Of a stretch of DNA of 64,000 bases, positions 7,120 to 57,711 are shown one piece after another. The stretch is from Cafeteria roenbergensis (taxonomy: Eukaryota > Sar > Bigyra > Bicosoecida > Cafeteriaceae), in assembly GCA_008330645.1 (NCBI GenBank), contig VLTN01000077.1:81894-145893 (forward strand), read 5' to 3'. Both the position numbers and the translations under genes were made by a program. Below the pieces are notes generated by a model that was not told the DNA's origin, searched no databases, and worked only from the letters and a program-made list of their open reading frames with translations. The first letter of the stretch is position 1. Every line of letters begins with the position of its first letter.

Positions 7120-9057
7120 CTAATGGCCGCCAGCCCCGGCGGCAGAGGCTGCGGCCGCGCCACCGGCAGCCGCCTCTGCTTCGTCGGGCGCCTCGCCAGC
7201 TGCCAGGCCGGACCCGCGCCCAAAGGCGCCCTCGGTGCCGCGCACCATGTCAGCGCTCTGCCCGGCGAAGTAGGTGTCGATGAAGCGCTGGGGGATCTTC
7301 TTCAGCATCGAGGCGCCCAGCACGCGCAGCAGCGACCACGCGCGGTCGAGGGAGTCGAAGATGGTCCGGGACTCGTCGTGGCCCTGGGAGAGGAAGTCCT
7401 CTTCAAAGAGCTGCATGAACTTGAGGTGCGTGCGCTGCTCCTCGGTGAGCGCCTCCACGCCCACAACTGTGCGCATGGCGTCTGCGTCCTTGCCTGCCGC
7501 ATACGCGGCGTAAAGCTGGTTGGACACGCTCGGGTGGTCCTCGCGGGTGAAGCCCTTGCCGATGGCGGACTTCATCAGCCGCGAGAGGGACGGCATCACG
7601 TTGATGGGCGGGTACACCTTGGCGTTGTGAAGCTGCCGGTCGATGTAGATCTGCCCCTCCGTGATGTAGCCGGTGAGGTCGGGGATGGGGTGGGTGATGT
7701 CGTCGTTGGGCATGGTCAGAATGGGCAACTGGGTGATGGAGCCGTTGCAGCCGCGGATGCGGCCAGCTCGCTCGTAGATGGTGGAGAGGTCGGTGTACAT
7801 GTAGCCGGGGTAGGAGCGACGGCCGGGCACCTCCTCGCGCGCCGCTGACACCTCCCGGAGCGCGTCGGCGTAGGAGCTCATGTCCGTGAGGATGACCAGC
7901 ACGTGCATCTCGCGCTCGTACGCGAGGTACTCCGCGGTGGTGAGGGCCAGGCGCGGGGTGATGATGCGCTCGATGGTGGGGTCGTCCGCCCGGTTGGTGA
8001 AGAGCACCGTGCGCGCCATGGCGCCGCTCTCCTCGAAGTCGTCCCTGAAGAAGCGGTCCGTCTCCTTGTTCACGCCCATGGCGCCGAACACGATCGCAAA
8101 GTTGTCCGGGTGGTGGTCCACGGTGCCCTTGCCCTCCACCAGCCCGGCCTGCCGGCAGATCTGCGCGCCAATCTCGTTGTGCGGCAGGCCTGCCGCCGAG
8201 AAGAGGGGGATCTTCTGCCCGCGAGCAATGCTGTTCATAGTGTCGATTGCGGAAATGCCAGTCTGGATCATCTCGCGCGGGTAGTCGCGAGAGTACGGGT
8301 TGATCGGCTGCCCCATGATGTCCTCCCACCGCTCTGCGAGCACGGGCGGCGCGCCGTCGGTTGGCTTGCCAGAGCCGTCGAAGCTGCGCCCCAGCATCTC
8401 CTCCGCGATGGGCATCTTATACACGTCACCGGAAAACTCGCAAGTCGTGAAAGTGTTGTCGATGCCGTCGGTGCCCTCGAACACTTGCACCACGGCACGC
8501 TTGCCCGAAATCTCGAGCACCTGGCCCTTGCGCTGGGTCCCGTCGCGCAGCGTAAGGTTCACGATCTCCGAGTAGCGCGGGGCCTGCGGGGCGGGCGGGG
8601 CGCGAGGCCGAGGCGGGGAATCGCGTGGCTGCGGAGAGGGCGCCCTGCAATCTGGACAGCAAGTCGGCTGCGCGGCTGGAGCCCTCGCCCCCTCGCGCGC
8701 CGGCGGGACGCAACAGCACGCGCATCTCAGGCAGAACGAACCTTGACGTTGTCCAGAATCACGAGGGGGCCGTTCACACCGGAGATGGTGCGGTAGTCTG
8801 CGCAAGAACATCCGAAGCGACACCGGAGAGCGCGAGGTTGAGGCTCGAGCGTGGCGAGCTGCTCGCGCGCCGGGCAGCGGCCCCACGGGGCAAGCCCCGC
8901 GCTGCGCCGCCGCCACGAGCCGACAGCCGGGCGCGCGCCGCCGCGTGCTCTCACCGATTCGCGGCGTCGCAGTGTAGTCGGCCATGGCCGCCATAGCATT
9001 GGCCAAATCGAGGCCATCTGCCCCGGGGAACCTGGCAGCCGCCGCAGACACGGACAT
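7120..9057 (-). CDS. VMA2: V-type H+-ATPase subunit B
   Basis: Three exons on the minus strand: 9057..8955, 8797..8742 and 8583..7120; 540 residues. The first donor is GTGAGA; the second is the less usual GTTCGT. Splicing joins [16 protein letters not shown] across intron 1 and [19 protein letters not shown] across intron 2, the continuous V-ATPase B sequence. The body carries family hallmarks: [73 protein letters not shown] and [19 protein letters not shown]. Subunit B is the regulatory nucleotide-binding subunit of the V1 head, which alternates with subunit A to drive proton pumping into acidic organelles. The C-terminus has an Ala/Gly-rich extension. The start is the ATG beginning [12 protein letters not shown]. 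Confidence 0.97.
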
Positions 9058-25315: not shown

Positions 25316-26838
25316 TCAGAAGCCGGCCTCGCGATAGGCCACCATGCCCCCCGTGAGGTTCTTGACGTTGCCGAAGCCGAGGCCAGTCAGAATCGCGGCG
25401 GCGGAGGTGGAGCGAATGCCGGCTCGGCAGACGACCACGACGGGAGTGCAGCGGAACGGGTCGAGCTCCGCGATGCGGGAAACGATGGACTGCACGGGGA
25501 TGTTGACTGCGCCGGGAAGGGCGCCCAGAGGGCCCTCTAGCTCCGCCGGCTCGCGGACGTCGAGCACGGCCAGGCGGTCCGTCCACCCCTCGCCCTTGGT
25601 CGCGTCGAAGAGCTGCTGCGGGGTCACCTGCCGCACCGCTGCAAGGTGCGAGTAGAGGGGAAGGTCCCCCTTGTCGTCGTCAAAGGCCGCCGCGTTCACC
25701 TGGATTGCCTCCATGATCTTCTCGGGCAGGGGCAGTCCGAGGTTGTCCATGATGTGCACGTACTCGGCCTCAGTCTTGCCGGCCAGGCGCGGGTTGCTGG
25801 CCTTCTCTTCCCCGATGGTTGACTTGGTGTTTCCGCGGTAGTCGTGGCCGGGGAGGACGATGGTCTCGTCGGGGAGGGCGAAGAGCTTCTCGGTGATGCT
25901 GCGGTACGAGTCCGACGCGTTGCCGCCAGCAAAGTCGGTGCGACCGGTGCCGCCGATCAGGAGGACGTCGCCTGTCATGACGTGCTCCCCATCATAGAGG
26001 GCAAGGTGGTCGCGCGTGTGGCCGGGGGTGTGCATCAGCGTGATGTCCACGCCGCCGATGCGGAACACGTCCCCGTCATGCACGTAGTGGTCGATGTACG
26101 GGTTGGGTGTGTACTGGGACATGACCGACTTGGACCCGGTAAGCGCCTTGAGCTCGCGCCTGCGCAGGGAGGGAGCCAGGGAATCACGGCAACAGCCTGA
26201 CAAGAAGCAGAGCACCTGGCCGGCAGGCCGCCTCCACTTGCCCCCCTGAGCAGCCGGGGCGCGAGGCGCGCTTGGACACGGCAGGTGTACACTTGTTTCA
26301 CCACTGCGTGCTCGCGGAGTCGGGGCAGCCACGCGTCGGAGGCGCGCGTCGGGGGCGCGCGCGCGGCAGGCGGGCGGCTCTCACAGGCAGGTGATGTGGT
26401 CGGCGTGCGTGTGCGTGTCGATGGCCGCGTCGAGGGTGCACCCATAGTACGACAGGACTCCGAGGTAGCGGTTGATGTGCTCCTTGACCGGGTCCACGAT
26501 GACCGCCCGTTTGCTGCGGTTGCAGGGGGCGCACGAAGCCGCGGTCAGCTGAGGCGTCGCGGAGCCATCAAGGCTGATCTGCAACTCCCGGCCTGCGTGG
26601 GAGGGCAGGCGGCCGCGGGCCCGCGCGCTCACGTGTACTTGTCGGCCACAAGGTATGTCTTGGTGCAGGACCGCTCGTCGTTGCCGTTCATCTCAACGAC
26701 GATTTTGTTGCCGTCGTCCGGATCGTCCCTCTGATACACCTGGGAGGCAGTTGAAGCCAGGCGTGCTGAGGGGCCGCTCGCGCTGGCGATCCGCGGCAGC
26801 ACACGACCCACGACGGAGCGGGCGCGCGAAGACAGCAT
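25316..26838 (-). CDS. ETHE1: Mitochondrial persulfide dioxygenase (ETHE1) fused to rhodanese
   Basis: Three exons, 26838..26633, 26513..26385 and 26159..25316, all junctions phase 2; 392 residues. Two donors are GTGAG and both acceptors CAG. The N-terminus MLSSRARSVVGRVLPRIASA is a typical mitochondrial presequence. Residues ~45-270 are the metallo-beta-lactamase-fold ETHE1 domain: THTHADHITC (across junction 2), TPGHTRDHLAL, TGDVLLIGGTGRTDF and LPGHDYRGNTKST supply the iron-binding His/Asp set. Residues ~285-392 are a rhodanese domain with LDVREPAELEG and the active-site loop VVVCRAGIRS (about Cys356). ETHE1 oxidises glutathione persulfide to sulfite; rhodanese transfers sulfane sulfur to sulfite or glutathione. 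The gene is head-to-head with SQOR, the preceding pathway step. Confidence 0.95.
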
Positions 26839-27672
26839 TGGCAGGGATCTGGCTGAGGGAGAGTCTGGAACACGGTTCGGAGTGCATGCGACGCCGGTTG
26901 CGGATGCAGGCCGCCACGGCTCTGCTGGGCGCGCGACAGCATTCGGTTCCATTGGGCGCAGCTGACGACGCTGTTTCCTCGCCGTTGCAACCGCAACTGA
27001 CTGGGTTTCTGCTGGACGGCCGCGCGCCCAGAGCGCAAGAGGCGTCCGGACTGGACGCCAGCTGCTGGTGCCATCCCCCTGTGTCCTTGCGCACGCACTG
27101 CAGCCGCCCAGAGAGAGAGAGAGTAGCTGCGGTCCGCAAGCGAAGGGCATCGTTGCTGTTCTTGCAGGCAGGTGCGTTTGGCCCTGCTGACAGCACTGTC
27201 CCAAGCGCGAGACCCATGCCCAGCCGCGGCACCGTTCAAGTGATTTCCACCCCCCCCCGGCCCCCTCCCGGGCCCAAAACCAGCCAACCCCCGCCCCTGG
27301 ACCTGAAAGCTTGCGGCTGCTGGTGGCATCTGCTGGCGGCGCGCCGGAACAGTGTCGGGCGGGAGCCGATGACGTGGGCGGGCCATCGCGTCGTCAGCGC
27401 CGCCTGCTGACGCACCCCCCCAAACGCCCTTTCCCGCAATCGGCCGCTGCGCGAGTGCAGGGGTCTGGCGCCGCGCGCGCTCCCTGCCGGCACCATGCCC
27501 TGCCCCACACGGGCCCACTTGCAATTCGCCGCAACCTCAACTCGCTCGACGCAGCCAGGTTGCACCAGCTGAGCTCGCTGCGGAGGGCGATCTGCTTTCG
27601 GCTCTGCGAGCGCGAGTTGCAGGTCTGCGACCCCCCGCGCTGGGGCACACCGCATCAGCAGCACGAGAAGGA
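26839..27672. promoter_or_regulatory. Divergent intergenic region of the sulfide-oxidation pair
   Basis: 834 bp between the ETHE1-rhodanese and SQOR start codons. It holds a short GA microsatellite near 27112-27124 and C-rich tracts near 27248-27275. No coding exon is convincing. The region should contain the promoters of both genes and could coordinate them. Confidence 0.45.
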
Positions 27673-29541
27673 ATGGCTGCCGTTTCCGCAAGGCTTGCAG
27701 CTCGCGCAGCCACCGCCACCGCCGGCGCGGCGCGGATGGCCCACACCGCGGCGGCCGGCGCCGGTGAACACTACCGAGTCTTGGTGGTCGGTGGCGGCGC
27801 CGGCGGGCTTGCAGTGGCCAGCTCGTTCGGAAAGAGCATTCCGGGCCAGGTTGGCGTCATTGAGCCGCGCAGTACCCACTGGTGAGGCTTGTCCCGGCAG
27901 TTGGGCCGTAGCCGCGCTCGGAACCGCGGCTCAAGCTGACGGGGGTGCCGAGGACCCGTGGCGCTTGCCGCTCCACGTCCTGGTCCACTTTGCAAGGCTC
28001 CCCGTGGCCCTAATTGCTTTGAAATCTGGCGTGCTGCAGGTACCAGCCGCTGTGGACCCTTGTCGGCGGTGGGGCGAAGCCCCTGTCCGAGAGCCGCCGT
28101 TCGATGGCAAGCGTCATGCCGGACGGCGCCAAGTGGGTCAAGGCAGCGTTTGAGGGTGTCGACCCGGACGCCAACAAGGTCACGCTTTCCGACGGGCGCA
28201 CTGTGTCCTACGACTTTCTGGTTGTGGCTGCGGGTGAGATGCTGCAACTGCACGCGCCGCGCAGCTGACGCTTGTTGCAGCGCTGCAACCGGCAGCGCGC
28301 GCAGGTACGCGGGCGGCGCCCTTGCGTGCCCGCGACCCACTGCCCCCCCCTCCCTGTGACCATCGTCGTGCCCGATCATCCCAGGCATTGACTCGAAGTG
28401 GGACGCGATCAAGGGCCTCCCGGAGGCGCTCGCAGCGAACAACGGCGTCAGCTCCAACTACAGGTGAGGGCCTTCCTGCAGGTTTCACCCGCCAGCTGCC
28501 CTGTGGTCTCTTGCCGGCAACCGCAGCGAGTGCCTCGCGTGCGCCTGCAGACATGTGGCACCTCCCAACCCCGGCCCCCTTTGGCATGGCGTGGCAACGA
28601 GCGCGCGAGAGGTGTGCGACCGGCCAGTTGAGTCCGTGCCCCCTTCCCCTTGCTCTTGCTGTTGCAGCCCCACCTCTGTCGAGAACACCTGGAAGAACAT
28701 CCAAGCCCTCGAGCGTGGCGACGCCCTCTTCACGTTCCCCAGCACCCCCATCAAGTGCGCCGGGGCTCCCCAGAAGATCATGTACCTCGCATCGGAGCAC
28801 TTTGCCAAGCACGGTCGCCCCGTGAACGTCGAGTACTTCAACGCGCTCGGCAAGATGTTTGCCGTCGACAAGTATGCGAAAGAGCTGAGCGGCATCTGCG
28901 ATGAGCGGAGCATCACGCGCCACTTCTTCCACAACCTCGTGGAGGTGGACGCAGTCTCCAAGCAGGCGACGTTTGCGAAGCTCGCCGACGGCGCCCCCAC
29001 CGGCGAAACCGTGACGCGCTCCTTTGACATGCTGCACGCGACGCCGCCAATGGGGCCTATCAAGGCGCTGGCCGACTCCCCCCTCGCCAACTCCGCTGGC
29101 TGGATCGACGTGAACCAGGAGACCTTGCAGCACACTCGCTACCCCAACGTCTTCTCGCTGGGAGACTGCTCCTCTATCCCGACCTCCAAGACTGCCGCCG
29201 CAGTTGCCGGGCAGAACGGGGTGCTGAAGGCGAACCTCCGCAGCGTGATGACGGGCATGGACCCCACTCAGAAGTACGACGGCTACACTTCGTGCCCCCT
29301 CGTCACCGGTCGCAACTCGCTCATCCTCGCTGAGTTCAGCGGCTTCACCGGCCAGCCCCTCGAGACGTTCCCATTCGACCAGGGCAAGCCGTCGGCCTTC
29401 GGCTACTGGCTCAAGGCAGAGGCCATGCCCACCCTGTACTGGGAGTTCCTTCTCAAGGACCGGTGGCACGGCGTGGCAAAGTACCGCAAGGCCCTGGCCT
29501 TCCTCAAGGACCCCGCCCACAACGTCAGCTCCCCGGCTTGA
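27673..29541 (+). CDS. SQOR: Sulfide:quinone oxidoreductase, mitochondrial
   Basis: Four exons, 27673..27881, 28040..28233, 28385..28463 and 28668..29541; 451 residues, the normal length of the eukaryotic enzyme. All donors are GTGAG. The N-terminal ~30 residues are Ala/Arg-rich, a likely mitochondrial presequence, followed by the FAD dinucleotide-binding motif VLVVGGGAGGLAVASSF. Junctions rebuild conserved sequence: HW-YQPLWTLVGGGAKPLS, VVAAG-IDSKWDAIKGLPE and NY-SPTSVENTWK. The two redox cysteines lie in KCAGAPQKIMY (about Cys191) and YTSCPLVTGRN (about Cys370), 179 apart, as in human SQOR. FSLGDCSSIPTSKTAAAVAG is the second FAD motif. The enzyme oxidises H2S, reduces ubiquinone and forms a persulfide that ETHE1 then uses. 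Confidence 0.97.
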
Positions 29542-29932: not shown

Positions 29933-31680
29933 ATGGAGGACGGCTATTTCGGCGCAGACAATGGCGCAGGGGAAGGGGTTGCATTGTTTGGCGAAGCTTT
30001 CGCTCCGCCGCCCGCGCCTGCTGCGCCTGCCCCCCATGGCGCTGCAAGCGCAGCCAGCACAGGCGAATCGGCGCACCATCATCATGGAGGGCGTTCTGAT
30101 GGGGGCGGTGAAGGTCACTACGGCCACGCAGGCATGCCTCCGGCGGCGGGCGGATTGGCATACGGCGGCGGCCACGACTCTTCCGGAGCCCACGGCGCCG
30201 CGGGAGGACAAGTCATGGCTCGCGGCGTGCGCAACAGGGAGCTTGGGTTCACTGCCAAGGCTCGCCTTCCCGAGCGGGAAGCCACGCAAGCCAGGATCGA
30301 CATCGCGCGAACCAACTTGGCCAACGTTCCCCGAGGCGTGAGCGACAGGCAGAGAGACATAGGGAGGAGGGCCGGCCCCTATGGATGGGGGCGCTCGCAG
30401 CGCAGGGAGCGGTGTCGCTGCGTGCGCGAGCCTGCGCCGGCGGTGTTGCGAGGCTTGCGCGAGCGCCCCTGCGCAACATCGTTGCTTTGCGCGCCAGCTC
30501 GGCCACAGACGAGGTTCCCGGCGCACCCTAGCGCCCTCCTATCGCCCCGTGACCGCAGACGGAACAGCACCAGGTTGATGACTCACAGGCAGACATTAGC
30601 GCGGCGTGCACTGAGCCCCGGAACCCCTGGGGACCGTACATGCGAAGCGACGGCGCATGGGTGACCCGGAGCGGCATTCTGCTCGAGCCCGGTACCATTC
30701 TCCCGCTGCCTTCCAAGCGGACCCACTTTGACATCCCGCTGCACGAGTACTCAAGCCACCCCTGGCGGGCCCCGGATGCGGACAGACTGTCGTTCTTCAA
30801 CTTTGGGCTGGACGAACCGGGCTGGGAAGCCTATGCCGCGTCCCAACGCCGGGTGCGGCGGGAGATGGAAGAGGCCATGGCAGCGGCCAGTGCGTTCAAG
30901 GCTGGAAGGCTTGGGCCGGAGCCGCCCCGCCTCGGCCGGCCGCCGCCGGAGTTCCTCGTGCATCTCGCGCGGGGAGCAACGACTGCGAGCTTCGCCGAGG
31001 CCGCTCTGCTTTCGCTGGGGGTGCACTTTGAAATTCCTGGTGCAGCGCAAGCGAACGCCCAGTTTCTTGCAATGCAGGGGGGCGGAGGGGCTGCGGCTCC
31101 TGCAGGGCCTGGCGGGCCGATGGGGCCTGGCGGGCCGATGGGGCCTGGCGGGCCGATGGGGCCTGGCGGGCCGATGGGGCCTGGCGGGCCGATGGGTCCT
31201 GGCGGGCCGATGGGTCCCGGCGGGCCGATGGGGCCTGGCGGGCCGATGGGTCCTGGCGGGCCGATGGGTCCTGGCGGGCCGATGGGGCCTGGCGGGCCGA
31301 TGGGGCCTGGCGGGTCGATGGGGCCCGGCAGGGCGGCGGGGTCGGACGAGATCCGCGCCATGCATGCTGCCCCTGATCACGGCCCTGCTAGTGGGGCCGC
31401 AGACATGGGCAGCGCTCAGCATAGGCCCGGCGGTGCAGGGGAGTTCTCCCGCGCTCCAATGCACGGCCACGCCGTCGGCAGCGACCGCCGGGGAGCACCT
31501 CCGCCTCAAATGAGTGGCGACAGGCGACGGGATGGCGGGCGAGGACACGGCTCTCGGGACGAAGATCGGAGTCACTCTGAGTACAGGGGTCACTCCCACG
31601 CTTCGGGCGCCTGGCAAGGTGCCCCAGCCTCGCGTGGTCCGCCCGACAGTGGCAGCGGTCGCCGTTTCTCGCGGGGCTGA
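29933..31680 (+). CDS. FIP1: Pre-mRNA polyadenylation factor FIP1
   Basis: Two exons, 29933..30337 and 30574..31680, phase 0, with a GTGAGC...CACCAG intron of 236 nt; 503 residues. The diagnostic FIP1 motif is [20 protein letters not shown] followed by [12 protein letters not shown] (about residues 178-210), equivalent to the PWR...DYFNYGFNE...W...Q block of yeast and human FIP1. The acidic/Gly-His-rich N-terminus and Arg/Asp/Ser-rich C-terminus ([19 protein letters not shown]) fit the family. A Pro-Gly-Gly-Pro-Met-Gly array follows the motif. FIP1 links poly(A) polymerase to the cleavage and polyadenylation factor in the nucleus. Confidence 0.88.
31108..31323 (+). repeat. In-frame minisatellite, about twelve 18-nt units (PGGPMG)
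   Basis: About twelve tandem copies of an 18-nt unit (consensus CCTGGCGGGCCGATGGGG, with GGT/GGG synonymous variants) lie inside the FIP1 coding sequence. The near-identical units indicate recent slippage or unequal exchange. The opposite strand reads as a collagen-like Gly-Pro-Ile/Gly-Pro-Pro frame, which I regard as an artefact. Confidence 0.95.
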
Positions 31681-43366: not shown

Positions 43367-46300
43367 TCACATGCCCCCAAAGAACCACTCGTCGAGAGTC
43401 TCGCCAGAGTCAGCCTGCTTGGCCTTGGCCGAGTTGCGCTCCGCCTGCCGAGCCGCCTGTGCCTCGGACACCGTGCGAGCTTCTGCAGCGGTGGTTGCCG
43501 CCGCAGCAGCTGCCATGGTGTCGAACGCCGGGCCGGAGCGGTCCGATCCCACCACGGCGGCGCCCTTTTCGAACCATTGTGCGAGTCGTGACTGTCCGCC
43601 AGGCACGGTTTTGCACCACCTGATGATCGTGGCCCGCGGCAGCAGCGCCATCACCGCCATGCTGCTCCGGGCAGACGCCGTGACCTCTGCCCGGGCTGCC
43701 AGCCGGTGGTGTCGGCTCAGCAGCGTGGAGCCGCCCGAAAAGTCCCCGCGCGTGAGCACCGTGGAGCTGTTTCCCGGCCTCCGAGCCTGTCGCTTCGAGG
43801 AGGGCCCGGGCGATTGGAGCGTGCGGCCGCTGCCTGTGCGGCCTGTGCGCCTCCCGCGGCCGGCAGAGGGTGCCGGGGCTGGCGTGGGCGCCTTTGAAGC
43901 CGCGCTCGCAGAGTCCTTGGCCGACGCCAGCAAGCCCTTGCCACGGGCGCCCGACGCGGCGCGCGCTGCGGCGAGCGCAGGGGGCACGCCCGCCTGCACC
44001 GCCTTGACCGCCGCGTCGGCTGCCGCAAGCTCCTGCCTCACGTGGAGCGAGGCCGCTCCGGCCAGGACGAGCAGCAGACTGTGCATGGCCTCGCCCTCCA
44101 CGCGACGCAGACACAGCGGGCCGACCAGCGTGGAGGCAGGCGCGGGGCCGGCGTGCACCAGCGGCACCGCCTCTACCAGCGCCTCCGCCCGCGCCTGCGC
44201 GACCAGCGTGTCGCCCCCGCTGCCCGCGGCGGCCTCCACGGCCGCTGCCCCAGCCCCCGCCGCCGCTGCCCGCCGCACGGCGCTGTCGGCAGCCTCGTCG
44301 GCAGCGAGCCGCCACTCCTCCTCGTCCACGTCCTCAGGGAAGCCAGCAGCGGCCGCGGCAGAGCCGTCGCCGTCGCCGTCCCCCGCGCCCGCGCACTCCC
44401 AACCAGGCTCCTCCACCCCGCCCCTGCGCAGAGCGCGGCAGCTCAGAGGCGGCGCCGTCACCGCGGGGGCCGGGCCGGAGTCCGCCCGCAGGCCCGCTGC
44501 CACGGCAGACGCCGGCCGGTTCCGGCCAAGCGACCGGGGCAGCGGGCCGTGGGAGGCCGCGTCTGCTAGCGTGGCACGCACGACCCCGTTGCGGACAACG
44601 CTGTCCGCAGCCGCAGCCGCCCGCGCGCCGGTGGACGCGTCGTCAGCCGACGATGCGCCCGACGCGAAACCGCTGCTCCGAAGGCCTCCGATGGCAGCGC
44701 CCTGCCCCGACGACGCGCTGCCCGCGGCTGCGGCGCCGCTCCCACCGCCGCTCCCACCGCCGCCGCCGCCGCCTCTGCCGCCATTGCCCCCAGCGCCAGC
44801 GCCGGCTGCAGCGCCAACAGCAAAGCCGCTGCCGCGCCTGCCGGCGCCGTCGAAGCCTGCCTGGTCGCCAGCAGTGCCAGGGTTGAGAAGCCCCGAGTGA
44901 ACGTCGCCGGTGCCGACGGGGCCCGACCCCACAGAGGGGGGCGGCGGCAGCGGCCGTGCGCGCGAGTGAGCCACGGTGACGCCCTGCCAGCACTCGCACA
45001 GCGGGGCGATCCTGTGGTCCTTGCCCTCGCCGCCCGCAATCCAGCGCAGCAGCGGGACGCGAATGAGCTGGGAGGGCTCGCGCCACACCACGGCCGACCG
45101 CACGGCTCGCCAGACCGGCGGCCGGTGGGCGAGGGTCCTGCGCACCGAGTCGTGGGTGACCCGCGCCAGGATGGTGGGGCTCAGCGCCACGGCCCGCGCG
45201 GCGCGCGGCGCCGGAACAACGAGGGCTTGCTCGCCCACGCACCCGCCCGGCCCCACGACGCGCAGCAGCGCCCAGCGGCCGGGCGAGTTGTGCACGGGAG
45301 CTGAAATCGCCACCCGCCCCGCCAGCACGACGTAGGCGCTGTCGCCCGGGTCCCCCTGCGCGAACAGCGAGCGGCCCGGCAGCAGCGTCACGGGCCGGAA
45401 CAGCGCGCCGAGCGACGCAGCGAGCTGCCAGGCCCGAGGAGGGCCGTCGGTGCCGGACGTGGAGGTGTCCGCGACCCCTGCGAGGAGGCACGGGACGCAC
45501 GCCACGAGGCGGTCCGGCCTGGCCATAGCCTCCAGGTAGGGGAGGGCGGCGGGGGCGCGGGGGCTGATGCGGCGGAGGAGGGGCAGTGACGGCCGCGAGA
45601 GCACGAGGAGCGACACGCCCGTGATGGCCACGATGGCAGACGGGGGCGGGCTGCCTCGCAGCAGCTGGCCCAGTCCCAGCAGGAAGGGCGCCGCCGTGGC
45701 GCCGACGTCGACCCACTCCGTGCGGGGAAGCGGGCCGTCGCCGGCGAGAGCCGGGCCGTCGCCGTCCTCGCCAGCCGCCTCGGCGAAGCTGGCAGCGATG
45801 GCGGCGGCGTGGCTGCCCGTGGGGGGAGCGGGGTCGACGGCCGAGGCTGCCTCTGGCGACGCCGCCCCGGCGGCGCCCTCGTCGCCGCCGCTGATCATGA
45901 GAGTGGGGCCCGAGCGCTGACTGGGCGCGCTCGCTCGCCGGCCCACGCCCTGCGGTGGGCCCGTCGCCGCAGACGCGGAGGCGAGCAGGGCCGCCCCGCC
46001 GGTGGCCGGCCGCCCTGTGACGCCGGCCGACGCGGCGCGGCCGAGGATCCTGCTGCGGCTGGGCGCGGCCGGCTCCGCGACGGACGCCGAGCGGCCGGGC
46101 ACGGGCTGCTGCTCCGCCTCGGCGCGCTGGCCGAGCCCCGAGCGGTTTCGCACCATGGAGGGCCCGCCGGCCTCCGCCGCAGCGCGGATCGGCGACCGCG
46201 CGGACGTCCTAGCGCGCGCCTCTGTGGGCCCCGGCGCCACGGGCAGACTGAGCGCCGAGGCGATGGCGTCGTCCACCTCGCTGAGGGGCGCCGATATCAC

Positions 46301-49300
46301 CCTGACACGGCCCCTCAGCAGCACGAAGGCCGCGTCGCGGCGGAGCAGGCGGCAGTCGGGGGGCAGCCTCGGGGGCCGCCCGGCGCCGGGGTACGGGTGC
46401 AGGAGCACCGTTCCGGCTGGCAGGGTCACCAGCGGCAGGGTTCGGAGGGCCGACGCGAAGGGGTCCGCTCGGAGCGTGGGCAGGGCAGGGGGCGCCTCCG
46501 CCACGCCCCCCTTCCACGCCGACGCGGCAGCGAAGATGGCTGGGCCGGCGCGAGTGACCTCCGCCACCCCAGACGCCGGAACGGGGCTCTGCGGTACGGG
46601 CTCCGCCACCTGGGCGGCGACGGTGGCCCGCACCGCGTCCTCCATCGCCCTGGCCATGGCGAGGGCGTCGGGGCGGCCGCCCGACACCGGCCCCCACCGC
46701 ACGTCCCTGGCCCCGCCGCCCCCCCCAATGGCCAGCGGCAGCACCGCGGCCTGCGCGAACGAGGACATGGCGTGCTGGCGAATGCCCATTTCAACCGCCT
46801 CTCGCCGGCAGAGCCGGTCCTGCGCCTGCCCGCGAACCACGGCCACACGGGCAGCGCGCCTCGCGCTGCTCGACGAGGCGCCGCCCCTGCCGCTGCCGGC
46901 CCCGCCAACCTCGCCGTCGGTGGAGTCGCTCGTGGCCGCCACGATGGAGCGGGCCCGCTCTGCGCCCGCGGCTGCGACCGCCACCGCGCTCGCGCCGGGG
47001 GCGGCGTGCCTGGCGCCACCGCCGACGCCGGAGCGGTCTCGGGACGTGCCACTCGCGCTCTCGTTCCCCCCTGAGGAGGCGTCGCTGACGAAACCGCTCG
47101 AGGCGCGCAAGTGCCGCATGGAGCGGCGGCGCCTGGCCGCGCGGTCGGGGCTCCCGGCGGCCGGGCCGGTCGAGCTGTCGTAGCCGTCGGGCGGGCGCTC
47201 GTGCGGGCTTCTGCCACCTGCGCTCGACGCGGACTCGTCCCCGGGGCCGGCGGTGATTCCCGGCACGTTGAGCGTTCGCATGCTGCGGCGGCGGGTGCGG
47301 AGGCGGCGCATCGCAGATCCGGCCGTGTCGGTGCCGCTGTCGGCTGCGGTGGACGGCACTGGCACGGAGGGGTGGGAGCCCGACCCTTCGGTGGCGCGGC
47401 GCGCTCCGGCAGAGCGCGCCCGCGGGCTGGGCGCAGAGCCCGACCCAGCCTCCGACTGGAACCTGACCCGGTGGGTGGGGGCGCCGGTGGACGAGGAGGA
47501 GCGGTGCTGCGCTGCCCCGCCGCCAGCGCCGGCCGCGCTTGACGCGGCCGGCGCGTTGTCACCGCCGCCGCCGCCGGTCAGCGCAGCCCCGCCCGCGCCA
47601 ACGGCACCGGACGGGCCCTCCGCGTCCTCGTCGGCGGCCGAGGCCCACAGAGCGCCCGGGGCGCCCGCTGCAGAGCCGCACCCCGGGCCGCGGCCGGCGC
47701 CGTCGCCGTCGCCGGGACTGCCCCGCATACCGGCCCCCCACGCCTGGACCGCGGCACGCAGAGCCGCGAGGCTCGACCCCGCGGCCAGCCCCAGCGGCCC
47801 CTGCGTCCCGTGCAGTCGCCGAACGGCGCCGTCCTCCGGCTCGGCCGCCAGCGCCTCCCTCGCCGCTAGCAGCACGCTGGCAGCCTCGCTGTCCGCGCTG
47901 CTGCCCGTGCGAGCGCGGTTGCGCGCGGCGGGCGGCGGCGCCACGCGCAGCGCCAGCGAGACGGACCGCCCCCGCCGGCGCCCCGTCGCAGCCATGGCCG
48001 CGACGGCGGAGCCAAGCTCCACCTCGGGCTCCTCTGACGACGACTGCGACGCCCGCGAGAGCCGCAGCGCGTGGCTGGGCCCGCTGCTCTTGCCCGTGAT
48101 GGACGAGCGGCCGCTGCCGGCCGCGCGGCCGCCCGTCACCAGCGCCAGGGGGCTTTGCGTCACGGAGGGCGGCGCCCGCGGCTGGGACGCCGGGGACCCG
48201 ACCACGGACGGGGACCCGCTGCGGATCGCGGAGTGGCGGGCCGCCTCCAGCGACGCCTGGGCGCAGCTCCGCATGGCGAGCGGCACGATTCGCACGGCGC
48301 GGAGGGGGAGCTGCCCCCCGGCAGATGCCGGAGCCGTCGCCGGAGCCGCCGCCGCCGGAGCAGCCGCCCCTCCGCCCGCGACAGCGGAGGCTGGGACTGC
48401 CCGGTCGAGACGGCACGACGCCACGACCCACGGGCTGCGCGCGGGCGCGGCTTCGCTGCCACCGGCTCGCGATCCTTCCGACGGTCCCTCCTGTTCCTTC
48501 GTCTCCCCGGCTGCAGCGCCGCTGCGCACTGCGCCGCTGGCTGCCCCCTCGCCGGCATGGTCGTCGTCGTCGTCGTCGCTGGACCGGCCGGCGTCGGACT
48601 GGCTGTCGTCACTGCCCCAGTCGGCGGCCAGGCGAAGCGGTTTCATGGCATCGTCGCCGTCGTGCCAGCTCACAACGCTGTCGGCCTCTTGCTTTGCCGC
48701 CTCGGCGGCCGCTCGGACCAGCGCCTCCACCCGCTTGGAGCGCCCCCCATCTGCGTTGGGAGTGTGGCGCAGAGCCATGGCCGAAGGCGGAACGCGGCTG
48801 GGGGTGGGGCCCAGCCCCACTCTGGCAGCGACGCTGCCACGTCTGGCCCGGGCACCGTGACGCAGAGCCGCGAGAGCAGCGATGGACGCGAGATGGAGCG
48901 CGCCAGCGCTTGCAAGGGCGTCGCTGGTGCCGCTGAGACCCGGCCGCAGCGGGCCCGACAGGCGGCTGCCGCTGCCGCCGCCGCCGCTGATGTCCCTTCC
49001 AGCGGCGCCGCTTGTCGCGCCGCTCCCCAGAGCCGCGTCTGCCGCCGCCTCGGCGCCCAGCTGCGCCCGAAGGCGCCTCAGGAACCGTGCCTGCCGCCGC
49101 ATCGACACGATAAAGGCTCGTTCCCGGGATGACATGGACAGCGCAGCGGCTGCCTGGGTCAGCGCCTCGGATGGCCGCACGTCAGCCAACGCCCTCGTCG
49201 CAGCGGCCACGGCCGACGGAACGGTCCGTTTCACGTTGATGACCGCCTCCGAGGCGCGGCGGCGCATGGGAGGGTGATCGTCGCCAGCTCCGCCGCCGCC

Positions 49301-52045
49301 GGCCCCGCCGCTCCCGCCCCCGCCGCCGCCTGCGCTCCCGGCCCCGCCGCCGCCCCCCGCCGCCGCCGAGTCCCGCTTGCTGAGCGCCTCGGCGCCATGC
49401 CCCATCACCAGCGCCAGCCAGTCCGTCTCCAGCCCCCCTGCCTCTGTGTCCAGGCTGGCCCCTCCGTGTGCGTGGGGGTCCACCTCGCGCGCCAGAACAG
49501 CGGCCGCAGCCGCTGCTTCCGCCCTGGCGCTCGACACGCCCGTGACTGACCCGGACCGGCGCACTCGGCGATCGGCCGCCGAAGCGGCTCCGCTCGCCCC
49601 GCTGCCGGCAGGGCTTCCCACCGCGGCCTTGTCTGGCGAGATCGCCCCGTTGCCAGCGGCTCCGGGGTACGAGCCGGCGTGCCGGCCCGCGCCGGGACCT
49701 GCCGCCGCCGCCGCTGCCGCCGCCGCCCTTGCCGCGTCCTTGTCGCCGCCAGACGCAAGAATGCGAGCCGCCGCCGCCGCCGCCCGCAGCTCCGACTCCC
49801 ACGCCTCCTCCTCATCGACCACCCACGCGGCAGTCGCCCCCGACCCCAGAACGGGCCGGCCCCCGCGCCCGCCAGCCGCGGTCGCGGCTCTGCCTGGACC
49901 GCCCCCGCCTGCTCCCGAGGCGGCTCTGCCGAGAGCAGAGCCGTTGACAGACAGGTCCCTGGCCCGCTTGGCCTGCTCCTCGATCTCCAGGGTGGCCTCC
50001 ACCTCGGCGGCAACGTGGCCCTCCAGCCAGGGATCCAGCTTCCACCCCCGGCCCTCCCCGGGGGCCGCCCCCTCAAGCCACCGGTGCAGCGGCTCCAGAC
50101 ACTCGCCCAGCGTGGCGACTCTCGCGGTCACCGCCCTCCTGATGGCGCGAGCGGCCGCCCGGCTGGCGGCTCGCGCCTGCCGCCGCTGGAATGTGTCCGC
50201 GCCGGCTGACCCGCCTCCGGCGCGCCGCCCCTCTGTCTCCGCCGCCGCCTCCTCCTCCGCCTCCTCCTCCGCCGCCGCCTCCGCCGCCGCCTCCTCGGCC
50301 TCCTCCTCCTCCTCCTCGGCCTCGCTCGTCAGGAGGAACCGGCCCGCAAACCGCTCCAGGCTCCACTCCAGCCCCGACGACGCCGCGCCCGCGGCGGGGG
50401 CCTGCGACAGCTCGCGAAGCGTCTCCTTCAGCGCCTCCGCCGCCCCCGCCGCCGTCCTCGCCGGGATGGAGTTCACGCCCGCGCTGTCTGCAGAGTCCAG
50501 ACCGCCGCGCCCCGCCCGCGCCTTCTTGATCTCCTTGAGACGCGTCTTCTCGGCCTTCTTCCGCCGCTTCAGCTCGTCCAGCGCGCGCCCCACGGCCGGG
50601 CGGGCGTGCCCGCCCAGCACAGGCGGTGCCCCCGGGAGCGGGAACAGGCCGCCGGGACGCGCCTCCTCGCCTAGGTCGGGGGCGGATACCAGGGGCGTCA
50701 GAACCCCCGTGTGGCAGAGCCGCGACGCCGACAGGAGCGACGCGCAAGACCTGGGAACGTTCCCGGAAATCTCCTCCCACCTGCTGGCGGGCTGGCGCGC
50801 CCGAGGGCGGTGGTTGTACACGTAGCTCCAGGCGGAGGATCCCGCCCTGGCCTCGTCCCCGGCGCCCGCGACGACGGCGGTTGGGGCTCTCGAACGACCG
50901 GAGGCGTGCCCGTCGCCGCCTCTGCCGCCCCCGCCCGCGGCGGCCCCGCCCGCGGCGGCAGCTGCGTCGGCCCCGCCCCTGCGGCCGCTGCTCCCGGCCT
51001 TCCGCTTGGCCGTCGCGGAGTTTGTCCCGCCGCCGATCGCCCCCGCGTCCGGGTCGATGGCGGGGTCGAGTTGGCTGAGAAGGCCCACCCCCGCGTTCCC
51101 CGCCAGCTGGGCAGACGCGCGGGCGGGGATGCGGCCCGCGTAAACGAGGGAAGGTCGCCTCCTAGACCCCGCCGCGCCGTCGGTCAGGGCCGCGCCCGTC
51201 GCATACATGCCCGGCAGGATCGCCGAGAGCTTGGACTCCAGCTCCCTGCTCCACCCGGCCGCCTCGGCCGAGGGCGCCTCGCCGTCGGGCTGCGCCCTGG
51301 CCGCCTCGTGCGAGGCGTCGAGACGCCGCTCCAGCAGAAACAGCAAGTCGCCGCCCCCGCCGCCGTGGCCGCCGCCGCCAGCGTGGCCGTGGCCGTGGCC
51401 GTGACCGCTGCTGGTGCCGGAGCCGCCCGCCGCCCCGCCGGGCGAGCGCGCGACGCCCTTGCCCGCATCGCCCTCGTCGTCTGTGGAGTCGTCCGCTCTG
51501 CTGGCCATGCGCCTGTGCGAGTGGCGGAGCGACTTGGTCACCAGACCGCGCCGCTTGTTTGCGTCCAGCACGGCAGAGAGGCGCATCTGCCAGTCCACGG
51601 ACTGCGTGTCCGACTCGGGCACGAGCGTAAACGTGCGAGCGTCCGTCTCAAGCAGCAGCGTGTGCCGGGGCAGGTCGTGGCGAAGCTCGGCGGCGCGCGC
51701 GGCGCCTGGCTCGCCAGGCCGCAATTCCGTCCGGTCCAGCCGCTTAATCGACCGCACGGTGCCCAGCTCGATCACCCCCAGGAACTCCTTCCTGGACTCG
51801 TCGCGGAAGTAGCGCAGGTCCTGCCCGTCGAGCACGAAGAAGCGGCGGTGCAGGTCGCCGCGCCGGCGCAGGGCCCGCCGCGCCCAGTTGCCGATGGACC
51901 GCATCGTCCGGCCGAGTGTCGCCGCCTTGTCCATGTCGGCGCTCTGGGGCGCCGTTTTCATCATCCAGCCGCTGTGCTCGGCGTCGGCGCGGTCTTGGCC
52001 GAGCGCCAGCCCGCCCAGCATGGGGTTGGCGCCGGCCAGGGCCAT
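43367..52045 (-). CDS. Giant PH-domain protein with cyclic-nucleotide-binding-like regions (2,892 aa)
   Basis: One uninterrupted frame of 8,679 nt from ATG 52045. Residues ~20-165 form a PH domain: SIGNWARRALRRRGDLHRRF, then FVLDGQDLRYFRDESRKEF and HTLLLETDARTFTLVPESD. Residues ~170-1830 are low complexity (Ala, Gly, Ser, acidic runs) with short helical islands. Three cyclic-nucleotide-binding-like folds follow: ~1855-2180 (TLPAGTVLL, FVLLRGRVRVI, split by a long insertion), ~2215-2310 (TLLPGRSLFAQGDPGDSAYV, then GEQALVVPAPRAARAVA, a good phosphate-binding cassette with Glu and Arg) and ~2640-2815 (LVLAGAASLHV, GDFSGGSTLLSRHHRLAARA, degenerate cassette). The second is the best candidate for real cNMP binding. 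A membrane-associated cyclic-nucleotide effector is inferred. Confidence 0.85.
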   Translation of the reverse strand: MALAGANPMLGGLALGQDRADAEHSGWMMKTAPQSADMDKAATLGRTMRSIGNWARRALRRRGDLHRRFFVLDGQDLRYFRDESRKEFLGVIELGTVRSIKRLDRTELRPGEPGAARAAELRHDLPRHTLLLETDARTFTLVPESDTQSVDWQMRLSAVLDANKRRGLVTKSLRHSHRRMASRADDSTDDEGDAGKGVARSPGGAAGGSGTSSGHGHGHGHAGGGGHGGGGGDLLFLLERRLDASHEAARAQPDGEAPSAEAAGWSRELESKLSAILPGMYATGAALTDGAAGSRRRPSLVYAGRIPARASAQLAGNAGVGLLSQLDPAIDPDAGAIGGGTNSATAKRKAGSSGRRGGADAAAAAGGAAAGGGGRGGDGHASGRSRAPTAVVAGAGDEARAGSSAWSYVYNHRPRARQPASRWEEISGNVPRSCASLLSASRLCHTGVLTPLVSAPDLGEEARPGGLFPLPGAPPVLGGHARPAVGRALDELKRRKKAEKTRLKEIKKARAGRGGLDSADSAGVNSIPARTAAGAAEALKETLRELSQAPAAGAASSGLEWSLERFAGRFLLTSEAEEEEEEAEEAAAEAAAEEEAEEEAAAETEGRRAGGGSAGADTFQRRQARAASRAAARAIRRAVTARVATLGECLEPLHRWLEGAAPGEGRGWKLDPWLEGHVAAEVEATLEIEEQAKRARDLSVNGSALGRAASGAGGGGPGRAATAAGGRGGRPVLGSGATAAWVVDEEEAWESELRAAAAAARILASGGDKDAARAAAAAAAAAGPGAGRHAGSYPGAAGNGAISPDKAAVGSPAGSGASGAASAADRRVRRSGSVTGVSSARAEAAAAAAVLAREVDPHAHGGASLDTEAGGLETDWLALVMGHGAEALSKRDSAAAGGGGGAGSAGGGGGGSGGAGGGGAGDDHPPMRRRASEAVINVKRTVPSAVAAATRALADVRPSEALTQAAAALSMSSRERAFIVSMRRQARFLRRLRAQLGAEAAADAALGSGATSGAAGRDISGGGGSGSRLSGPLRPGLSGTSDALASAGALHLASIAALAALRHGARARRGSVAARVGLGPTPSRVPPSAMALRHTPNADGGRSKRVEALVRAAAEAAKQEADSVVSWHDGDDAMKPLRLAADWGSDDSQSDAGRSSDDDDDDHAGEGAASGAVRSGAAAGETKEQEGPSEGSRAGGSEAAPARSPWVVASCRLDRAVPASAVAGGGAAAPAAAAPATAPASAGGQLPLRAVRIVPLAMRSCAQASLEAARHSAIRSGSPSVVGSPASQPRAPPSVTQSPLALVTGGRAAGSGRSSITGKSSGPSHALRLSRASQSSSEEPEVELGSAVAAMAATGRRRGRSVSLALRVAPPPAARNRARTGSSADSEAASVLLAAREALAAEPEDGAVRRLHGTQGPLGLAAGSSLAALRAAVQAWGAGMRGSPGDGDGAGRGPGCGSAAGAPGALWASAADEDAEGPSGAVGAGGAALTGGGGGDNAPAASSAAGAGGGAAQHRSSSSTGAPTHRVRFQSEAGSGSAPSPRARSAGARRATEGSGSHPSVPVPSTAADSGTDTAGSAMRRLRTRRRSMRTLNVPGITAGPGDESASSAGGRSPHERPPDGYDSSTGPAAGSPDRAARRRRSMRHLRASSGFVSDASSGGNESASGTSRDRSGVGGGARHAAPGASAVAVAAAGAERARSIVAATSDSTDGEVGGAGSGRGGASSSSARRAARVAVVRGQAQDRLCRREAVEMGIRQHAMSSFAQAAVLPLAIGGGGGARDVRWGPVSGGRPDALAMARAMEDAVRATVAAQVAEPVPQSPVPASGVAEVTRAGPAIFAAASAWKGGVAEAPPALPTLRADPFASALRTLPLVTLPAGTVLLHPYPGAGRPPRLPPDCRLLRRDAAFVLLRGRVRVISAPLSEVDDAIASALSLPVAPGPTEARARTSARSPIRAAAEAGGPSMVRNRSGLGQRAEAEQQPVPGRSASVAEPAAPSRSRILGRAASAGVTGRPATGGAALLASASAATGPPQGVGRRASAPSQRSGPTLMISGGDEGAAGAASPEAASAVDPAPPTGSHAAAIAASFAEAAGEDGDGPALAGDGPLPRTEWVDVGATAAPFLLGLGQLLRGSPPPSAIVAITGVSLLVLSRPSLPLLRRISPRAPAALPYLEAMARPDRLVACVPCLLAGVADTSTSGTDGPPRAWQLAASLGALFRPVTLLPGRSLFAQGDPGDSAYVVLAGRVAISAPVHNSPGRWALLRVVGPGGCVGEQALVVPAPRAARAVALSPTILARVTHDSVRRTLAHRPPVWRAVRSAVVWREPSQLIRVPLLRWIAGGEGKDHRIAPLCECWQGVTVAHSRARPLPPPPSVGSGPVGTGDVHSGLLNPGTAGDQAGFDGAGRRGSGFAVGAAAGAGAGGNGGRGGGGGGGSGGGSGAAAAGSASSGQGAAIGGLRSSGFASGASSADDASTGARAAAAADSVVRNGVVRATLADAASHGPLPRSLGRNRPASAVAAGLRADSGPAPAVTAPPLSCRALRRGGVEEPGWECAGAGDGDGDGSAAAAAGFPEDVDEEEWRLAADEAADSAVRRAAAAGAGAAAVEAAAGSGGDTLVAQARAEALVEAVPLVHAGPAPASTLVGPLCLRRVEGEAMHSLLLVLAGAASLHVRQELAAADAAVKAVQAGVPPALAAARAASGARGKGLLASAKDSASAASKAPTPAPAPSAGRGRRTGRTGSGRTLQSPGPSSKRQARRPGNSSTVLTRGDFSGGSTLLSRHHRLAARAEVTASARSSMAVMALLPRATIIRWCKTVPGGQSRLAQWFEKGAAVVGSDRSGPAFDTMAAAAAATTAAEARTVSEAQAARQAERNSAKAKQADSGETLDEWFFGGM

Positions 52046-55570: not shown

Positions 55571-57711
55571 ATGAAGGGCGCCTTCAGCATCGTTGCGATG
55601 CTCTCGGCGGCCATGGTGGCCACCGCGAGCCCCCTGTGGGACTACGTCAACGCCCAGGACGACGCGTTCAAGTGGCACCCGACCGGCTTCGTGCTCAACA
55701 ACACTGGCCTCGGCTGGACTGGTGAGTCGCCCAGGAGCCCTAGAACGGGCGTTGTCGGCCTTTTGGCGGGAGGGGGGCGTTGGGGGGGCTCAAACGGCCC
55801 GCCAGGACGTGTCGCGCGCCCTGCTTTGGCGCCAAGTTGACGACCGTGCCATTTGCCAGCGAGGCCCCGGCCGCCGCCCCGGGCTCGAGCCCGCGCTCGG
55901 GCCGCGCCAGGGAGCAGAGCGCGGGTGAAGCTCCCCGCTGCTGGGCGACGCGGCGTCCGGAATGGCCGGCACAGCGCTCGCGGGCGGCAACTTTCCGACT
56001 CGGGCCGCGATCGTTGTCCTCGGTCGCTTCCGCCCTCGCAGGCTACCTCCTGAACGTGACCTCCGGCAACTGGATGACCCCCGAGTACTCCAACCGCTAC
56101 ACCTGGACCCACCAGCTGCTTGTGGTGGTGCCCGACAAGGTGGCCGACACCACCCACGCCGCCCTGTACATCACCGGCGGATCCAATGGCCAAGGCAACC
56201 CCAAGGTGGACAGCGAGGACACCCTCTTCTGCGGCGTGCTCGCGGCCTCCACCGGCACCGTCTGCGGTGTCTTGTGGCAGATCCCCAACCAGGACATCAT
56301 CTTCCCCAGCGACCCCGTGCAGCCCCCCAAGAGCCGCGGAGAGGACGCCGCTGTTGCCTTCACCTGGTGGGATTTCCTGCGCCACCAGGACCAGCCCGAG
56401 CGCATCCTGTACTTCCCCATGACGCGCGCTGCTTCCCGCGCCATGGATGCTATCGCCCAGTTCGCTCCCACCAGGGTGCCGGGCGCCAAGCTTGACAAGT
56501 TCCTCGTCTCGGGAGCGTCCAAGCGCGGATTCATCACCTGGTTCACCGCTGCGGTCGACTCGCGCGTTGTGGCTGCTGCCCCCATCGTGATGGACCTTCT
56601 CAACATCCAGGAAAACATCATGCACCTGTACCGCGACTTTGGAGGCTTCAGCTTCGCCTTCAAGGACTACTGCGACCTCAACCTCACCCAGTACCTGCCC
56701 ACCGGCGAGTTCGCCCCGCTTGCCAAGCACATCGACCCGCTCGAGTTCAAGGAGAACCTCACCATGCCCAAGCTTGTGATCGACTCCACCGGCGACGAGT
56801 TCTTCGCCCTCGGTGAGCCCGTGTCTCGCCACAGCAGCAGCAGCGCGTTGTTTCCGCAGCGCTGAGCGCCGCCCCCAGCTGGCTGCTTCATGCCTGTCAC
56901 TCACTCGCTCCCCCGCCGTGCCGCGCTTTTCTTCTTCCACCGCCCCCCCCCCCCCCCCCCCTCCCGCCTCCGGTCGCAGACGACGACCACTACTGGTGGG
57001 GCATGCTTGAGGGAGAGACCAAGCGCCTCATGGTGGCCAACGCCGAGCACAGCATGGCAACCGGCGTCATCCCCCTCATCACCGGCCTCGACGCCTTCTG
57101 GCAGTCCATCATCTCCAACACGCCGCGCCCCGAGATCTCCTGGACCATGGCCCCGGACTCTGGTGTCATCGACTTCTACACCAACGTCAAGCCGAACAAG
57201 GTCGTCATGCGCTTCTCGCAGACCCTCGACGGCAAGCGCCGCGACTTCCGCCTCGTGCGCGGCGACACCCCCGCCGACCCCTGCGAGCCCCAGGGCATCC
57301 CCGTCAAGATCTTCGGTGACGGTGAGCCTCCCCTGCCGCCCCGCCGCGGCCTTGACGACCACCCGCGCTCGCTTGCGTCGTATCCCAGACTGGCCTCCGC
57401 GCCAGCCGCTCGCCAACCCTCCCCCTCCTGCTCCCTGCCCACCCCCCACCCCCGCTTCCCGCCCGCCCGCAGCCTGCCTCGTGCCCATCATCTGGCTCGG
57501 AGAGGACATCGGCCTCGTCGGCCAGGACGAGAAGGGCTACCACTACCAGGCCGTCATGCCCATCCCGGGCGTCGGATGGCGCGGCTTCCTTGTCGAGGGC
57601 TACTGGCCGGGACCCAACGACTCCACGTTCCAGTTCACCTCTCAGGTGTCCATCATCCCCCAGACGCAGCCGTACCCCAACTGCACGGTCTGCAACTGTG
57701 TGCTGGTCTGA
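55571..57711 (+). CDS. Secreted PhoPQ-activated-related / AprA-like protein
   Basis: Four exons, 55571..55721, 56042..56812, 56980..57321 and 57473..57711, all junctions phase 1; 500 residues. All donors are GTGAG. A signal peptide (MKGAFSIVAMLSAAMVATA) precedes a PhoPQ-related domain: WTHQLLVVVPDKV, ALYITGGSNG, KFLVSGASKRGFITWFTAAV (nucleophile-elbow-like GASKRG), VIDSTGDEFFAL joined to DDDHYWWGMLEG, and PNAEHS-like VANAEHSM. Relatives are the bacterial PhoPQ-activated pathogenicity-related proteins and the secreted proliferation repressor AprA of Dictyostelium; the fold is alpha/beta-hydrolase-like. Enzymatic activity is unproven. The C-terminus is Cys-rich (PNCTVCNCVLV). Intron 2 contains a C19 homopolymer (56943-56961). 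Confidence 0.93.

What the first reader, a model, noticed from the sequence alone, without database searches (positions are those of the whole stretch)
25316..29541. Head-to-head nuclear gene pair for mitochondrial sulfide oxidation
SQOR and an ETHE1-rhodanese fusion, which catalyse consecutive steps (H2S to persulfide to sulfite/thiosulfate), are divergent neighbours sharing an 834-bp intergenic region. Such clustering is normal in bacteria but not expected for nuclear genes of unrelated fold. Both carry mitochondrial-type N-termini and introns, so this is not a recent bacterial insertion. A common promoter could co-induce the whole pathway, making this the best candidate here for a functional module.
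Basis: partly seen in the sequence, partly recalled or inferred. Interest (0 to 1): 0.75.

Follow-up and report, generated by a model that had tools for sequence, protein, structure and literature searches.

The report
Linked sulfide-oxidation gene pair in Cafeteria
A marine flagellate carries, back to back in its nuclear genome, the genes for two successive steps of mitochondrial hydrogen-sulfide removal, one an ordinary eukaryotic gene and the other a bacterial-type double enzyme, and a distant relative appears to keep the two genes linked.

Summary
The pair is real. A four-exon sulfide:quinone oxidoreductase gene (SQOR; + strand, 27673-29541) and a three-exon persulfide dioxygenase-rhodanese gene (PDO-Rhd; - strand, 26838-25316) lie head to head, 834 nt between start codons, in Cafeteria burkhardae, probably strain BVI. 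Active-site motifs are intact in both. SQOR is the ordinary eukaryotic enzyme. The partner is not ETHE1: its dioxygenase domain joins bacterial-type PDO-rhodanese fusions (54-58% identity; branch support 100/100), apart from human and plant ETHE1 (45%, 41%). No canonical ETHE1 was found in the assembly. Likeliest history: a captured bacterial fusion gene took over ETHE1's mitochondrial role beside the resident SQOR. Introns shared with metagenomic relatives make it old. Linkage seems conserved: a 66%-identical fusion and a 64%-identical SQOR from a metagenome both report 3 contigs, longest exactly 32,347 bases; order and orientation there are unseen. A shared promoter is not supported: the gap is ordinary for this genome and its repeats are at chance level. 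Bacteria show the same neighbourhood (SQR-like gene near the fusion in 7 of 80 loci, one head to head). Known parts, unusual combination; co-regulation untested.

The parts
27673..29541 (+). Mitochondrial-type sulfide:quinone oxidoreductase (SQOR), 451 aa, 4 exons (27673-27881, 28040-28233, 28385-28463, 28668-29541)
   Evidence: Splicing; human SQOR 446.6 bits; away from 3 bacterial SQRs at 100/99
25316..26838 (-). Persulfide dioxygenase-rhodanese fusion of bacterial type, 392 aa, 3 exons (26838-26633, 26513-26385, 26159-25316)
   Evidence: Splicing; Pfam; BpPRF over residues 51-391; tree
26839..27672 (.). 834-nt region between the two start codons; no repeat above chance found
26740..26838 (-). 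Probable mitochondrial presequence of the fusion (first 33 residues: 5 Arg, no Asp/Glu)
   Evidence: absent from the public model P0001, which starts at Met50
27673..27771 (+). Probable mitochondrial presequence of SQOR (first 33 residues: 3 Arg, 1 Glu); relative P0122 also carries a basic N-terminal extension
26514..26632 (-). Intron 1 of the fusion (119 nt); position and phase appear shared with relative P0002, whose reading frame runs through the same acceptor (NRSKK)
   Evidence: by eye
26160..26384 (-). Intron 2 of the fusion (225 nt); position appears shared with relative P0004, whose reading frame runs through the acceptor (CRREL)
   Evidence: by eye

Best explanation
The locus is a working two-gene module for mitochondrial H2S disposal. 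SQOR oxidises H2S, passes electrons to quinone and puts the sulfur on glutathione. The fusion's dioxygenase domain oxidises glutathione persulfide to sulfite, and its rhodanese domain moves sulfane sulfur between persulfide, sulfite and thiosulfate. The SQOR is the lineage's own eukaryotic gene. The fusion descends from a bacterial PDO-rhodanese gene that entered before the window's lineage split from metagenomic relatives of about 65% protein identity, gained introns and very probably a presequence, and stands in for the ETHE1 that this assembly lacks. The two genes have stayed linked since. Shown: gene structures, families, conserved motifs, tree positions, no other type I PDO found in the assembly. 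Inferred: direction of transfer, import, activity, replacement of ETHE1, conserved adjacency. Not shown: co-regulation.
For: Gene models. SQOR: GGGAGG at 40 and cysteines C191 and C370, in motifs that align with human SQOR (their roles recalled). Fusion: H103, H159, D176, GRTDF at 184 and rhodanese loop C356-RAGIRS. 25-row PDO-domain tree: one branch, 100/100, parts 20 rows (window, P0002, P0004 and 17 bacterial-type fusions) from 5 rows (human and plant ETHE1, BpPRF, Myxococcus PDO, 9rhq). 201-row tree: window, P0002, P0003, P0004 one clade, SH-aLRT 100. SQOR tree: 21 rows (window, relatives, fungi, animals, unnamed) against 3 bacterial rows at 100/99. A human ETHE1 query in the own genome gives 5 rows: 2 are the window gene, 1 is the C5 gene of type II (247.5 bits to 4ysk), 1 is glyoxalase II-like (C4) and 1 looks glyoxalase II-like by eye (C70). 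The fusion query gave 6 rows: 3 window stretches, the C5 gene, the same C4 glyoxalase and a LACTB2-like gene. Conserved linkage: P0004 and P0242 both list 3 contigs, longest 32,347; I ran to look for this, though no note recorded the expectation beforehand; about 0.008 exact matches are expected by chance among contigs of 20-50 kb. Fold: the first six Foldseek matches are BpPRF chains over the full length.
Against: Direction of transfer is inferred: only the 120 best of 7914 hits plus 80 bacterial loci were sampled, and the window clade is a long-branched group of unresolved place among the fusions, so other eukaryotes with this fusion may exist unseen. The shared contig length shows linkage within 32 kb at most, not adjacency or orientation, and no hit comes from the 7,818-base contig of the SQOR relative P0123. 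No evidence for a joint promoter: gap ordinary, best inverted repeat reached by 44 of 60 shuffles. In a 70% GC genome non-coding frames also read Ala/Arg-rich, so presequence-like composition is weak evidence. Other pathway genes are unlinked.
Confidence: 0.62

Rival explanations
1. Coincidental neighbours: both genes work in sulfide oxidation but became adjacent by chance and stayed so by ordinary slow rearrangement; each has its own promoter.
For: Divergent gaps like this are normal: 19 divergent coding-block gaps in the window plus twenty 10-kb stretches, this pair included, have a median of 1177 nt, and the pair measures 1289 by the same method. No repeat above chance in the gap. With 8483 proteins (PMC6972860, passages) two given genes are neighbours with a chance of about 2/8483, but a genome has many consecutive-step pairs, so one such pair somewhere is not startling. 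Linkage in a relative could be plain synteny.
Against: Apparent linkage in a relative of only about 65% protein identity, and the same pairing in bacteria.
Confidence: 0.33
2. The pair entered together as a bacterial SQR-PDO unit.
For: Bacteria have such units: an SQR-like gene lies within the fetched flanks of 7 of 80 bacterial fusion loci, and L057 has SQR and PDO-Rhd head to head with 105 nt between starts.
Against: The window SQOR falls with fungal and animal SQOR, with the SQRs of three fusion-bearing bacteria outside at 100/99; the organism names given among the 120 best SQOR hits are Cafeteria, fungi and animals.
Confidence: 0.04
3. The fusion is a eukaryotic ETHE1 that gained a rhodanese domain inside this lineage.
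For: Same general fold and motifs; mitochondrial-type N-terminus.
Against: The dioxygenase domain alone groups with bacterial-type fusions at 100/100 and is 9-17 points closer to them than to human or plant ETHE1; linker and rhodanese align end to end with bacterial 345-aa proteins.
Confidence: 0.02

Closest known systems
BpPRF, PDO-rhodanese fusion of Burkholderia phytofirmans (PDB 5ve3-5ve5)
   Same: Same domain order; aligned over residues 51-391; first structural match over the full length; rhodanese Cys loop kept
   Different: In the tree it sits with ETHE1, not with the window's subfamily (it is a long branch). By the title of Motl et al. 2017, seen only in reference lists, it functions in sulfur assimilation
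Bacterial 345-aa PDO-rhodanese fusions (Acidiferrobacterales, Burkholderiales, Binatia and others)
   Same: 54-58% identity in the PDO domain, end-to-end alignment; some lie beside SQR-like genes
   Different: Bacterial and uninterrupted frames; most start where the window protein's residue 46-50 lies, without a presequence
Human/plant ETHE1 (4chl, 2gcu)
   Same: Same reaction expected, same metal-site motifs
   Different: No rhodanese domain; other side of a 100/100 branch
Human SQOR (6oi5 and others)
   Same: 446.6 bits over residues 32-437; both cysteine motifs kept
   Different: Gene neighbourhood in humans not examined
Bacterial SQR-PDO gene neighbourhoods
   Same: Same two activities close together; L057 head to head
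   Different: Bacterial SQRs are on the other side of the tree
Adjacent co-regulated gene pairs of eukaryotes (PMC3500266, abstract)
   Same: Functionally related neighbours, divergent orientation among the kinds known
   Different: Co-regulation unknown here

Membership tests
Eukaryotic mitochondrial SQOR | Sequence and tree placement with eukaryotic SQOR | tested here: met
Eukaryotic mitochondrial SQOR | Two redox cysteines and FAD-binding motif | tested here: met
   C191, C370, GGGAGG at 40, aligned with human SQOR; roles recalled
Eukaryotic mitochondrial SQOR | Import into mitochondria | tested here: inconclusive
   Basic N-terminus, relative P0122 too; no localisation data
ETHE1 | Groups with human/plant ETHE1 | tested here: not met
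   Other side of a 100/100 branch
ETHE1 | Stand-alone dioxygenase without rhodanese | tested here: not met
   Rhodanese domain, Pfam 6.2e-13
Bacterial-type PDO-rhodanese fusion | PDO domain followed by one rhodanese domain, end-to-end homology | tested here: met
Bacterial-type PDO-rhodanese fusion | Metal-site residues and rhodanese cysteine | tested here: met
   H103, H159, D176, C356; two-His-one-Asp iron site per PMC6060420 passages, residue assignment by alignment with recalled human positions
Bacterial-type PDO-rhodanese fusion | Persulfide dioxygenase and sulfurtransferase activity | not testable with these tools
   Needs assay
Co-regulated divergent gene pair | Unusually short shared region or shared element above chance | tested here: not met
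   Gap ordinary; inverted repeat at chance
Co-regulated divergent gene pair | Linkage kept across species | tested here: inconclusive
   Same contig count 3 and longest contig 32,347 for P0004 and P0242; adjacency unseen
Co-regulated divergent gene pair | Correlated expression | not testable with these tools
   No expression data

The most novel reading that the evidence does not exclude
A eukaryotic 'mini-operon' assembled by gene transfer: a captured bacterial PDO-rhodanese fusion landed beside, or was brought to, the resident mitochondrial SQOR, displaced ETHE1, and has been held there by selection for joint control from one intergenic region, converging on the head-to-head layout seen in a bacterium.
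Probability: 0.22. Interest if true: 0.65.

Novelty: new variant of a known kind. Interest (0 to 1): 0.45.

Why it matters
It suggests that a core mitochondrial detoxification step can be handed over to a bacterial two-domain enzyme, and that the newcomer can end up next to its metabolic partner in a nuclear genome. That makes the question why functionally linked eukaryotic genes become neighbours testable in a free-living protist, with a clear substrate (sulfide) as the trigger. I saw no report of such a case in the listings of my full-text searches: 14 of 14 papers listed; 0 papers; 20 of 106; 10 of 14; 10 of 41; 0; 15 of 1,942. Only titles and the starts of abstracts were seen there, and the library holds only open-licence papers.

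Tried and rejected
Rejected: ETHE1 identity; joint transfer of both genes from bacteria; a common promoter element. The only inverted repeat reported in the gap (26955-26971 / 27388-27404) carries the 11-mer GCGTCGTCAGC in the orientation of each gene; the 11-mer occurs 3 times in the window against 0.21 expected and in 3 of the 20 other stretches of this genome, but an inverted match at least as strong appears in 44 of 60 shuffles, so I do not count it. Other metallo-beta-lactamase hits as a second ETHE1: glyoxalase II-like or LACTB2-like.

Led nowhere: three viral-contig scans for relatives' DNA (0 relatives); Rfam and tRNA scans of the window (0 hits); the order of L057's genome (2 of 53 genomes hold the fusion at E <= 1e-70, L057's own included); the MAST-3 genome paper for five sulfur terms (0 occurrences).

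Full report
Where it is. The window is G000:C77:81894-145893 of an assembly of 36,303,456 bases in 167 contigs. The SQOR protein matches hypothetical protein FNF29_07816 of Cafeteria roenbergensis (now C. burkhardae, PMC8547959 passages), whose contig is 145,893 bases long, the end coordinate of the window. The published CrBVI assembly has 36,327,047 bases in 170 contigs and 8483 proteins (PMC6972860, passages), so strain BVI is likely.

The observation. Splicing at GT-AG sites gives a 451-aa SQOR on the + strand and a 392-aa PDO-rhodanese protein on the - strand, with 834 nt between start codons. GC3 is 0.85 and 0.88. Public models are shorter: P0121 lacks the first 91 residues of SQOR and P0001 the first 49 of the fusion. 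A full-length, unbroken relative of SQOR on a 1460-base contig (P0122, probably a transcript) supports the exon model and also has a basic N-terminal extension.

What the enzymes are. SQOR: 446.6 bits to human SQOR, cysteine and FAD-type motifs kept. Fusion: metallo-beta-lactamase plus rhodanese, best solved relative BpPRF over residues 51-391. AlphaFold on the 343-aa form P0001 with 18 rows gave mean pLDDT 79.8 and pTM 0.71, and the first six Foldseek matches are BpPRF chains over the full length (TM 0.56 and rmsd near 19, so the relative placement of the domains is not reliable).

Bacterial type, not ETHE1. Of the 120 listed hits to the fusion (7914 in all), those carrying an organism name are bacterial apart from P0001; most carry none. 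PDO-domain identities: 54-58% to the 17 bacterial-type fusion rows, 49% to Myxococcus PDO, 45% to human ETHE1, 42% to BpPRF, 41% to Arabidopsis ETHE1. One branch at 100/100 puts the window and its two relatives with the bacterial-type fusions and the other five rows apart. In a 201-row tree the window and three metagenomic relatives form one clade at 100, on a long branch among bacterial fusions. Searches of the own genome with the fusion (6 rows) and with human ETHE1 (5 rows) found, besides the window gene: a C5 gene nearest to type II PDO (4ysk, 247.5 bits) without an obvious presequence, a glyoxalase II-like gene on C4, a LACTB2-like gene on C4, and a C70 gene that reads like glyoxalase II by eye. 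So the fusion is the only candidate found for ETHE1's mitochondrial role; a gene in an assembly gap cannot be excluded.

How old. P0002 and P0004 read through splice acceptors at the positions of introns 1 and 2 (NRS-KK and C-RREL against NRS-KR and R-RREL in the window), so these relatives seem to be eukaryotes with the same introns (by eye). The fusion has then been a nuclear gene at least since those splits (77% and 66% identity).

Linkage in a relative. I ran, with the last SQOR exon as query, to see whether an SQOR fragment comes from the 32,347-base contig of P0004. It did: P0242, 64% identical, 'eukaryotic sulfide quinone oxidoreductase', 3 contigs, longest 32,347; P0004 also lists 3 contigs, longest 32,347. 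Among the 120 fusion rows and 150 SQOR rows (9 without a contig) one other length coincides, 1508, where lengths are crowded; about 0.008 matches are expected at 20-50 kb. At 36.3 Mb for 8483 genes such a contig holds some seven or eight genes, so linkage is close, but order and orientation are unseen, and whether the whole region is collinear is untested. Against this, no fusion row comes from the 7,818-base contig of the SQOR relative P0123; that contig may end too soon or carry the fusion in short exons.

Is the arrangement special? A crude codon-score map of the window plus twenty 10-kb stretches found 134 coding blocks and 19 divergent gaps, median 1177 nt; the pair itself, one of the 19, measures 1289 because small exons are missed. 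So the 834-nt region is not unusually tight. Repeats in it are at chance level. Other pathway genes are elsewhere: two rhodanese domains close together on C20 and a sulfite-oxidase dimerisation domain on C50.

Bacterial parallel. In 7 of 80 bacterial fusion loci (the best 80 of 237) an SQR-like gene lies within the fetched flank (a lower bound, as flanks vary). In L057, a gammaproteobacterial MAG, they are head to head with 105 nt between starts, next to a gene that looks like a SulP transporter by eye. In L022 and L033 the SQR-like gene is downstream on the other strand, some 4.5 kb and 0.2 kb away; L072, L073, L079 and L085 have a weak SQR-like gene (22-25% identity) just upstream on the same strand. 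The SQRs of L057, L022 and of L041's genome (L096) lie outside the other 21 rows at 100/99, so the Cafeteria pair was put together from two sources.

Mechanism. SQOR makes persulfide and feeds electrons to quinone; the fusion turns glutathione persulfide into sulfite and can exchange sulfane sulfur with sulfite or thiosulfate (unit of SQR, PDO, rhodanese and sulfite oxidase as in PMC12856154, introduction passages). With a sulfite-oxidase domain encoded, both sulfate and thiosulfate are possible end products. This is inference from family membership.

Verdict. A real, probably functional and apparently linked-by-descent pair, made of a eukaryotic SQOR and a bacterial-type fusion enzyme.

Noticed in passing
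25316-26838 and 27673-29541: Public gene models of both genes look truncated at the N-terminus (P0001 starts at Met50, P0121 at residue 92 of the spliced model), which would hide the presequences from targeting predictors.
   Followed up: partly
L002 1-3153 (G000:C5:871120-871554): A second persulfide dioxygenase gene, type II-like (4ysk 247.5 bits), apparently with introns, no rhodanese seen and no obvious presequence; perhaps cytosolic.
   Followed up: partly
L057 1988-4351: Gammaproteobacterial SQR and PDO-rhodanese genes head to head, 105 nt apart, with a SulP-like transporter beside SQR.
   Followed up: partly
window 7126-8574: V-type ATPase subunit-like gene on the minus strand (Pfam ATP-synt_ab and ATP-synt_VA_C).
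   Followed up: no
window 56023-56823: PhoPQ_related domain (Pfam 3.5e-73), a family named for bacteria, in this nuclear contig; possible further transfer.
   Followed up: no
window 43913-52045: Two very long minus-strand coding-like blocks in the most GC-rich part of the window (75-79% GC); not identified.
   Followed up: no
window about 31080-31330: Run of MGPGGP hexapeptide repeats in a + strand ORF (30640-31680).
   Followed up: no
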